Below, one piece after another: positions 54,346 through 57,580 of a stretch of 64,000 nucleotides of DNA. Source of the DNA: Kalmusia sp. IMI 367209 (taxonomy: Eukaryota > Ascomycota > Dothideomycetes > Pleosporales > Didymosphaeriaceae); the NCBI GenBank assembly GCA_027946365.1, contig JAPEUQ010000003.1:1736001-1800000 (forward strand), written 5' to 3'. The translations under genes were made by a program, and so were the position numbers. Under the pieces are notes generated by a model. The model saw nothing but the letters and a program-made list of their open reading frames with translations. It was not told the origin of the DNA and ran no database searches. Within the stretch, counting starts at the first letter, position 1. Each line of letters starts with the position of its first letter.

Positions 54346-54937
54346 ATGGGTTGCCAGCCTTCACACGAAGAATCATCTTACGACGCTCCGCCAGCGTACG
54401 AAAAGGTCCCGACGAGCATTACAACAGGTGATGGGAATAAAGGCGGTTCAAGTAACACCAACTGTACGTGAATCAAGCTGGATATTTCCTGTTTAAAAAT
54501 TTTATAATGTTTCCTCTAGGCAGAAACTGTGTAGATTGTTACAGTTGCACAAACTGCGACGGTACGTGTCCATTTCCCTTGACTTCTTATTTCTAACTAA
54601 CTAGGCAAGATTGCGTGCGAAGTAAAAGCTGCACAGCCTGCAAAAATCTTACCGACTGCAAAAGTTGTACCGCTAGCAGCAACCTAGTCGACTGCGGATC
54701 GTAGGTCATTTGGGCTCGTCTTAATGATAGATCTAAATAGCGCAGTTGCACCTCTTGTGATAATATGGAAGGGTATGTATATGTTGAGTTTCTGAAGAAG
54801 AAAGCTGACAGTATGAAGATGCACTTCTTGTACAAACTGCTCGGGTGAGTCGGCCTGTGAGGAATAGAAACTCGAGGTTCGCTAATTACTCATTAGGCTT
54901 GAAAAACCGACATGGTCTGACCAATGTACACGAATGA
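54346..54937 (+). CDS. MGC-type Cys-triplet-repeat protein A, 114 aa, six exons
   Basis: Exons 54,346-54,463, 54,520-54,561, 54,610-54,700, 54,746-54,772, 54,819-54,844 and 54,897-54,937 are separated by introns of 45-56 nt with GTACGT, GTACGT, GTAGGT, GTATGT and GTGAGT donors. The protein begins MGCQPSHEES: Gly2 with Ser6 fits N-myristoylation and Cys3 fits palmitoylation. A PPAY motif (residues 15-18) could bind WW domains. From C40 to C100 there are 21 consecutive triplets. Sixteen start with Cys and the others with Ser, Leu or Met, and the third position is mostly Asn, Asp, Ser or Gly. The tail is CSGLKNRHGLTNVHE. There is no signal peptide. A membrane-tethered metal- or redox-active protein, or a regular left-handed/PPII-like fold, is conceivable; nothing is proven. 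The model is supported by the triplet register being kept through every splice and by paralog B. Confidence 0.8.
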
Positions 54938-55336
54938 TCAAAGGTGACGAAAGCCATATGAGAAGTGTAGGGGGAATGGAATTCCTTATTGGCTAATGTC
55001 TGCTTTCCTTGTATCGAATCACAAGTCTTTGTGTTTAGTTAGCAGCGAGATGTCGTTCTACTATTGACTGTCTGCTTTGAGACTTTTGTATATAGAACAG
55101 CTCCAATTCGTCCGTCTAATTCACGCTTGCGTACTCTACTCCCATATTGGATGGGGGCCGTAAAACTACCCCTCACCACCGTCACACAAGCTTATCATGC
55201 CCCCTGGCCATGACGTCGCCTTCTCTGCATCCATATACATCAGCAGTAATACACTTTTGCACCGTCATTTATCGTGTAGTCTTCCTTGTTCCTAAGTTCC
55301 TAGCTTCGGCGAAAGCTTCATCTTTCCGTGTTAATC
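54938..55336. promoter_or_regulatory. Spacer between the two Cys-triplet genes
   Basis: This 399-base gap between tandem same-strand paralogs should hold the terminator of A and promoter of B. No specific element was identified. Confidence 0.4.
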
Positions 55337-55805
55337 ATGGGCTGCTTTTTTTCCACTGAGAAGTTGTCCGACAAGCCCTCTGTCACCGACGATGGTGGCC
55401 ATAACAACAACAATTGTAAAGGATGCATAGACTGCTCATTGTAACAACCACCCTCCACATATAAGACTCCTATTTTTTAACATCCCCAAGCTGCAATGAC
55501 TGCGTCGGTTCGCTTTCCCGGCTTTTCTTCTCCTCATTAATCCTGACTCATGTTCTTCAAAAGACTGCGTTCGATGCAAGAATTGCAACGATTGCACGGG
55601 ATGCGAGGATAGTCGAAAGTAGGGATGATGTTACATCTGGCCTTCGTGATGCTGACGCGTCTATAGTCTGAATAATTGCGTGGACTGTGTCAAGTAAGTA
55701 GGTTGAAATGGAGGTTATGATGGAGGCTAACGATGAAGTTGCTCGAACTGTGACGATTGTTCCGGGCTGAAAAATCGGCACAATGAGTCGGGTGTGCATG
55801 AGTGA
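55337..55805 (+). CDS. MGC-type Cys-triplet-repeat protein B, 89 aa, five exons
   Basis: Exons 55,337-55,440, 55,491-55,507, 55,564-55,618, 55,667-55,693 and 55,739-55,805 have introns of 45-56 nt; the second donor (GTTCGC) is weak. The start MGCFFSTEKLS again has Gly2, Cys3 and Ser6 for dual acylation. An Asn-rich linker (HNNNN) leads into 17 consecutive triplets from C27 to C75. Fifteen begin with Cys and two with Ser or Leu (SRN, LNN). The ending is CSGLKNRHNESGVHE, sharing CSGLKNRH and VHE with A. The intron before CVR lies at the same place and phase in both paralogs. The last intron of A is absent in B. B lacks the PPAY motif. It is a tandem duplicate of A with four fewer triplets. No known family is recognised. 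Confidence 0.78.
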
Positions 55806-56075: not shown

Positions 56076-57580
56076 TTACCTGCTGAAGGTTCGATGCAGT
56101 GACCCTTTCACTTTCCGTTTCTCGATCTTCTCGTTGTACTCCGTTAGGAGCTCCTGCGTACCAAGAAGATCCTCTTCGGGTAGCCAGTCGCTGCTGTCCT
56201 CGTAACCATCCCATTTAACTAAGTAGTACTTCTTGCCATCTTCATACGAATGACTCAGTATAGCTTCCACTACAAATTCCTCTCCACTCTGTTCTTCACG
56301 ATCGTCTTCTGTGTTTCCGTCGTGAATGTTCTGCTCAGCGGCGTCGGACTTGTCCGAAGGTATTGCACTATGTTCAAATACGGGTTGTCGCATATGGAGC
56401 ATGCGGTCATCGGAGCGAGTACTAGACTCCGAAGCGCTTGACTCAATTTTCTCCGCCAGTATGCTCTTCGATAAAGAGTGCGTGAGTGCAAATGACTGCT
56501 TAGGTGACGTTGGACCTGCCTTTGTCATAATCAACGCTGATGTAGATGCCCAATCTTCTGTCCTACGCCTCTTCGTGCGATGGTCGTCCGCACCGTCGCT
56601 TTCCGTGCCAAGGAAGTTTCTCCCGTATTTGTCCCGTTCAAATTGTAGTTGTACCACCGCGTCGGACCTTGAACGCCCATCTTCTTCGGAATTGGAGTCA
56701 TCGTCGATGGGAGACCGGCGGGTAAGCATCAGCGACTGGCGTCGGTGAGTTGCGATAGGCGAGTTGGGTAATGCGCTGTTTGTAAGCAAAGAGTTGCGGG
56801 CCTGGCTAGGCGACGGCTTGTTCGTTGATATCTCATAATTGTCCTCTCCATCAACATCTTCAGTATCGATACTGGCGATCTGGAACGATTGGCGGCGCTG
56901 CAGCTTCTCCATAGCGTCAACATCCTGACCACCCGCTGTAGTAAGACCGCACCGTGCTAGTCCCCTTCCTCGACCCCTGCCTCTACCTTTACCCCTACCT
57001 CTCGGTCTCCCTCTTGAGCGGACCTGTGTTTCGGAGTCCAGGCCTAACCCCCTCAACATCCTATTCCCACGGCCAAACCCCCGCTCCCTAGCATTCTTCT
57101 CTAATTTGCGTCGGGCAAGTTCGTCAGCTTCCGCACGCCGCGCGACTGCCTCCGCTTGCGCCACTGCTGCAAAGTCTGCTTGCTCGAAGCGTTCGAGCTC
57201 GCGTCGCGACACATATTTGAGGATTTGGCTCATATCGACTTGTAGGACTTCTTCGCGGAGCTTGGCAGGTTCATTTGAAGCTTTAATGGGGAGCTCGCTG
57301 ATTTGGACGAGATAATAGTTTCGGGCGAAGCCGTCATCGGTTTGTCTACGGCTCAGTATGGTCGATTTCGCGTTCGGCAGGGGGCATTCTTTCGGTAATC
57401 GGTGTGTGATTGTCGGTGGCGCTTTGTGTAGGCGGAATAAACCATCGTAGACTTCGGGGGCGGGCTTATAGACTTCCCATTTCGACTATTACACACTATC
57501 AATCTTTCACTATTGCGCAGAGTGGGGAATGTATCACTTACCGTAATCTTCTTATTCTTAGACCCTCGTGGTCTCCCCAT
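56076..57580 (-). CDS. Chromodomain protein with AT-hook-like and RG-rich segments, 482 aa
   Basis: Exons 57,580-57,542 and 57,485-56,076 are joined over a 56-nt phase-0 intron (GTAAGT...TAG). The 13-residue first exon is MGRPRGSKNKKIT, an AT-hook-like core (GRPRG). Residues about 14-90 are a Pro-containing ordered part (SKWEVYKPAPEVYDG; FARNYYLVQIS). A charged helix follows, then an RG-rich run near 173-189 (GRPRGRGKGRGRGR). A long disordered Ser/Asp region follows. The chromodomain lies at about 415-470: FVVEAILSHSYEDGKKYYLV, then KWDGYEDSSDWLPEEDL. Its aromatic residues (Phe/Tyr at the first strand, Trp in KWDGY, Trp in DWLP) fit a methyl-lysine cage. A nuclear chromatin reader is likely; the histone mark cannot be told. 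Confidence 0.85.

What the first reader, a model, noticed from the sequence alone, without database searches (positions are those of the whole stretch)
54346..55805. Tandem genes for acylated proteins made of a strict Cys-x-x triplet repeat
Both assembled proteins start MGCxxS (fits N-myristoylation plus palmitoylation). They then show Cys at every third residue for 17 (B) or 21 (A) triplets. In A all 16 repeat cysteines fall at positions C40+3n; the few replaced positions are Ser, Leu or Met. Third positions are mostly Asn/Asp/Ser/Gly. Both end CSGLKNRH, 3-5 residues, VHE. I know no named family with this design. A period-3 Cys array on the cytosolic face of a membrane could bind metal clusters, form a disulfide ladder, or fold as a three-residue-per-turn helix or a beta-solenoid.
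Basis: partly seen in the sequence, partly recalled or inferred. Interest (0 to 1): 0.9.

Follow-up and report, generated by a model that had tools for sequence, protein, structure and literature searches.

The report
Lipid-anchored cysteine-triplet solenoid protein pair
A probable fungus carries two neighbouring genes for small proteins that look set to be fixed to a membrane by fats and have a cysteine at nearly every third position; they probably coil into a narrow rod with the cysteines inside, a design shared with unstudied phage and bacterial proteins and with a beetle antifreeze protein.

The parts
54346..54463 (+). gene A exon 1: MGCQPS start, PPAY, linker
54520..54561 (+). gene A exon 2: first coil and start of the second
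54610..54700 (+). gene A exon 3: repeat array
   Evidence: acceptor moved to the second AG to keep the frame
54746..54772 (+). gene A exon 4: repeat array
54819..54844 (+). gene A exon 5: end of array, CSG of the closing segment
   Evidence: second AG used as acceptor
54897..54937 (+). gene A exon 6: closing segment LKNRHGLTNVHE and stop
55337..55440 (+). gene B exon 1: MGCFFS start, linker, first triplets
55491..55507 (+). gene B exon 2
55564..55618 (+). gene B exon 3: repeat array
55667..55693 (+). gene B exon 4: repeat array; its flanking introns match those of A at -16 and -7 from the last Cys, phase 2
55739..55805 (+). gene B exon 5: end of array, closing segment CSGLKNRHNESGVHE and stop

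Best explanation
A and B are tandem paralogues of a small membrane-tethered protein. Inferred: loss of Met1, myristate on Gly2 and palmitate on Cys3 hold it on the cytosolic face of a membrane. A linker leads into a tight four-sided solenoid: each side is one C-x-[N/D/S/G] triplet, four sides make a 12-residue coil, the register residue (Cys, at times Ser/Leu/Met) points into the core, the middle residue makes the strand bridge and the third the corner. A has five such coils, B four; a closing segment (CSG LKN xxx xxx VHE) with Leu and Val in register caps the rod. What best explains that Cys itself is kept, rather than any small residue, is thiol chemistry of neighbouring CxxC pairs in the rod: most likely binding of a soft metal such as Cu(I) or Zn(II), or reversible oxidation, beside the membrane. 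Shown: register, 12-residue phase, family. Well supported: gene models. Predicted, on a relative: fold. Inferred: acylation and thiol function.
Confidence: 0.45

Rival explanations
1. Same tethered solenoid, but the cysteines only pack a very narrow core; the work is done by the outer face, which binds a partner, as recalled for pentapeptide-repeat proteins.
For: Middle and third residues vary widely between members while the register is fixed; phage proteins join the array to other domains, e.g. phrog_31265.
Against: Ser, Ala or Val would serve as well, yet Cys fills 3751 of 3907 register positions (partly a selection effect).
Confidence: 0.25
2. A disulfide ladder across the core, as in the beetle antifreeze protein (C2-C8, recalled), stiffens the rod.
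For: Best structural and sequence match in PDB is that protein; P0006 and P0010 have N-termini that by eye could lead to mitochondria.
Against: MGC start implies the reducing cytosol; in the register, 4 of 5 coils of A lack the partner Cys; losses are not paired two triplets apart.
Confidence: 0.1
3. A flexible, metallothionein-like chain that folds only around metal; no solenoid.
For: Small, very Cys-rich; phage array predicted with low confidence.
Against: 12-residue phase and a conserved closing segment; pLDDT 84-94 for P0001.
Confidence: 0.1
4. A, though not B, is an ice-binding protein: its five coils carry S-C-T in the place of the beetle T-C-T.
For: S-C-T in 5 of 5 coils of A, in phase with 1ezg in an ungapped alignment (22 of 63 identical; triplet-permuted decoys 2 of 300); P0001 has it in 3 of 5 coils (decoys 4 of 300).
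Against: B has none and P0006 has N-C-N/D; 7 of the 9 proteins tested had 29 or more of 300 permuted decoys reach their score; inferred cytosolic site; PF02420 not matched.
Confidence: 0.05
5. Not functional genes: the splice model is an artefact of fitting the register.
For: No transcripts; splice sites were picked to fit, and two introns of A need the second AG.
Against: Three introns shared in position and phase by A and B; conserved start and end; a relative with the same start and end (P0001).
Confidence: 0.03

Closest known systems
PHROG family phrog_15341 (phage proteins, function unknown)
   Same: C-x-x triplet array; A 1.1e-8, B 2.6e-7, P0001 4.2e-11; some members share the cap C-x-G-L
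   Different: Phage members have other N-termini, often a further C-terminal domain (phrog_31265), no MGC start and no introns; the loci tested do not show the clean 12-residue phase
Insect antifreeze protein of Tenebrio molitor (1ezg/1l1i, PF02420)
   Same: 12-residue unit; best match of the P0001 model and of the profiles; S-C-T in A where the beetle has T-C-T
   Different: No PF02420 match; about twice as many Cys; lipid-type start instead of a secreted protein; no beetle-type partner Cys in 4 of 5 coils of A
Pentapeptide-repeat proteins
   Same: Four-sided solenoid built from short repeats; AlbG and MfpA appear low in the fold lists
   Different: Triplets here, five residues per side there; Cys core
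Metallothioneins
   Same: Small, very Cys-rich, probably cytosolic
   Different: Recalled fungal motif is CxC; here spacing is CxxC, with lipid-type start and closing segment; no Pfam match above cut-off
Collembolan polyproline-II antifreeze proteins (PMC10235112, passages)
   Same: Strict three-residue repeat
   Different: Gly-x-x with three residues per turn; no 12-residue phase known to me

Membership tests
phrog_15341 | Match to the family profile | tested here: met
   A 1.1e-8, B 2.6e-7. In a profile I built from 78 phage and bacterial proteins, 0 of 200 Cys-preserving decoys reached A or B; but 57 of 200 reached P0001 and 4 of 200 P0014
phrog_15341 | Closing segment C-x-G-L after the array | tested here: met
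   A and B CSGL; 36 of 131 arrays end C-x-G-[LMI], so it marks part of the family only
Insect antifreeze protein (PF02420) | Match to the Pfam model | tested here: not met
   A and B: not listed at E <= 10
Insect antifreeze protein (PF02420) | 12-residue repeat of the type TCTxSxxCxxAx | tested here: inconclusive
   12-residue phase in A; B only at lag 8. A has SCTx(C/S)xx(C/L/M), register
Insect antifreeze protein (PF02420) | Partner Cys at position 8 for a cross-core disulfide (recalled) | tested here: not met
   A: Cys in 1 of 5 coils; B: no reliable register by alignment
Insect antifreeze protein (PF02420) | Tight beta-helix fold | tested here: inconclusive
Insect antifreeze protein (PF02420) | Ice binding | not testable with these tools
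   S-C-T column in A, none in B
N-myristoylated and palmitoylated MGC proteins | N-terminal MGCxxS (recalled substrate motif) | tested here: met
   A MGCQPS, B MGCFFS; P0001 MGCFPS at residue 45, start unproven
N-myristoylated and palmitoylated MGC proteins | Actual acylation | not testable with these tools
   No proteomic data
Metallothionein | Match to a curated family model | tested here: not met
   A and B: no metallothionein in Pfam at E <= 10
Metallothionein | Metal-thiolate clusters | not testable with these tools
   No metal data

The most novel reading that the evidence does not exclude
Phages, bacteria and fungi share a rod whose core is a column of thiols, four per 12-residue coil, that loads a soft metal such as Cu(I) along its axis: a protein-sheathed metal column, hung in fungi on the cytosolic face of a membrane by two lipids and in some bacteria by a transmembrane helix.
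Probability: 0.12. Interest if true: 0.9.

Novelty: new variant of a known kind. Interest (0 to 1): 0.6.

Why it matters
A solenoid with a cysteine core would be a thiol chemistry that no characterised family known to me has, and the design recurs in phages, bacteria and fungi, filed as hypothetical protein or, in one phage, insect antifreeze protein. The fungal pair adds a lipid-type anchor, a 12-residue phase and a defined cap, so these small genes are handy members for expression, metal analysis and crystallography. If the beetle antifreeze protein shares descent and not only fold, the family would also bear on where that protein came from; that is open.

Full report
What is there. The window is bases 1736001-1800000 of contig C23 of an unnamed 42.8-Mb genome in 30 contigs. 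That it is a fungus is inferred from its short-intron genes and its relatives, not shown. Gene A (54346-54937) and gene B (55337-55805) lie head to tail on the + strand. Spliced, they give A of 114 aa and B of 89 aa, 55% identical where aligned. Both begin MGCxxS and end CSGLKNRH, four residues, VHE.

The repeat. A has 21 triplets with 16 Cys, B 17 triplets with 15 Cys, each repeat Cys in one register. Splice sites were chosen with the register in view, so the register alone is not independent proof. The intron map is better proof: three introns sit at the same place and phase in A and B (+14 phase 1 from the first repeat Cys; -16 and -7, phase 2, from the last), and between them the genes differ by 12 residues. 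Two introns of A and one of B are not shared.

The hidden unit is 12 residues. In fours, A reads CRN CVD CYS CTN / CDD CVR SKS CTA / CKN LTD CKS CTA / SSN LVD CGS CTS / CDN MEG CTS CTN / CSG. Identity of middle and third residues at a lag of four triplets is 0.412 against 0.158 in triplet shuffles (0 of 2000); in P0001 it is 0.361 against 0.179 (6 of 2000); in nine fungal-like proteins, A, B and P0001 included, 0.384 against 0.201 (0 of 2000), the same at lag 8, and no excess at the other seven lags. B alone shows it at lag 8 (1 of 2000) but not at lag 4 (956 of 2000). Fifty-nine IMG/VR proteins show small rises at several lags, 19 proteins from other loci none at lag 4 (191 of 300), and five bacterial membrane proteins peak at lags 5 and 8 (all). 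So the clean phase belongs to the fungal set.

Relatives. A database search with A+B gave P0001 at E 6.3e-9 and two weaker hits. P0001 has MGCFPS at residue 45 and ends CSGLKNARNLNGVHK. With A, B and P0001 as query, 52 of 345 candidates reached E <= 1: among them P0014 of Phaeosphaeria sp. MPI-PUGE-AT-0046c, the one hit whose source name is fungal; P0006 and P0010, ending CSGLRNASNQTGVHR and CSGLKNASNESGVHQ behind N-termini that by eye look mitochondrial; P0013, P0019, P0022, P0027 and P0029 with an N-terminal hydrophobic helix and the cap C[VI]GLIGV; and P0009 of the insect Adelges cooleyi. I call P0005, P0006, P0010, P0020, P0034 and P0001 fungal-like by their closing segments and N-termini; their hosts are not named. 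In viral contigs, A+B gave 8 loci and the Flavobacterium phage FL-1 protein 114, of which 80 were kept. In the prokaryote genome collection A+B gave 7 loci, all with titles of candidate-phyla bacteria; those proteins are larger and less regular. A and B match phrog_15341 at 1.1e-8 and 2.6e-7.

Homology or a shared Cys grid? Most of the score is grid: against a profile of 78 phage and bacterial proteins, decoys that keep Cys and shuffle the rest average 31.7 (A) and 30.9 (B) bits against 45.4 and 48.3 for the real proteins. None of 200 decoys reached A, B, P0006 or P0010; 4 of 200 reached P0014 and 57 of 200 reached P0001. The closing segment is independent of the grid: 36 of 131 arrays end C-x-G-[LMI] and 67 of 131 end Cxx[LMI], while L/M/I are 34 of the 156 non-Cys register residues inside arrays (one of 132 proteins, P0047, was dropped for too short an array). 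Phage L014 ends CSGLTGARGLRGVHK, 11 of 15 identical to P0001. I take common descent as likely; the direction of any transfer is open.

Mechanism. Replacements in the register (62 Ser, 23 Leu, 14 Gly of 156) fit an inward position. Losses of Cys come in neighbouring triplets (51 pairs against 23.2, 0 of 500) and not two triplets apart (19 against 22.2). The beetle protein pairs residues two triplets apart (recalled; PMC4204002, passage, gives the unit TCTxSxxCxxAx with extensive disulfides for a beetle relative). In the register, A keeps the partner Cys in 1 of 5 coils. So a beetle-type ladder is unlikely for A and neighbouring CxxC pairs are the better unit. An MGC start should put the protein in the reducing cytosol. 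I therefore favour thiol chemistry, soft metal or reversible oxidation, over a fixed ladder and over pure packing. This step is inference. The S-C-T column of A, in phase with T-C-T of the beetle (permuted decoys 2 of 300; P0001 4 of 300; the other seven proteins tested 29 or more of 300), is absent from B.

Novelty. Not a new kind: the triplet design is shared with a phage family in PHROGs, with a Vibrio phage protein deposited as insect antifreeze protein and a Campylobacter phage protein with recorded PF02420 hits. New, as far as the listings can tell, are the fungal lipid-anchored form, its 12-residue phase and the shared closing segment.

Noticed in passing
L017, L029-L108 (phage contigs): Large phage family: N-terminal cap, (C-S-[D/G/R])n array of widely varying length, then in many members an IHxxV...WHTCxTTHCRAGW domain (phrog_31265). 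Function unknown; array composition looks fast-evolving.
   Followed up: partly
L022-L028: Larger proteins of candidate-phyla bacteria with several CxxC stretches, often followed by C-x-G-L-x-N-K-x-Y-C-I-x-N-K-Q-Y, close to the cap of A and B.
   Followed up: no
P0013, P0019, P0022, P0027, P0029: Metagenomic bacterial-looking proteins: N-terminal hydrophobic helix, 21-23 triplets, cap C[VI]GLIGV; a second membrane-tethered form of the design.
   Followed up: partly
P0006, P0010, P0005, P0020: Fungal-like arrays behind N-termini that by eye resemble mitochondrial presequences; P0006 also has a hydrophobic stretch.
   Followed up: no
P0009: Partial uncharacterised protein of the insect Adelges cooleyi (LOC126843168) with 26 C-x-x triplets.
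   Followed up: no
window 54380-54410: Protein A holds PPAY in its linker, a possible WW-domain ligand (motif recalled); B does not.
   Followed up: no
window 56079-57485 (-): Neighbouring gene with a chromodomain (PF00385, 7.6e-13).
   Followed up: no
L065:451-1113: A second long C-x-x open frame (CVQCVPC...) beside the phage gene; may be a chance reading of another repeat.
   Followed up: no
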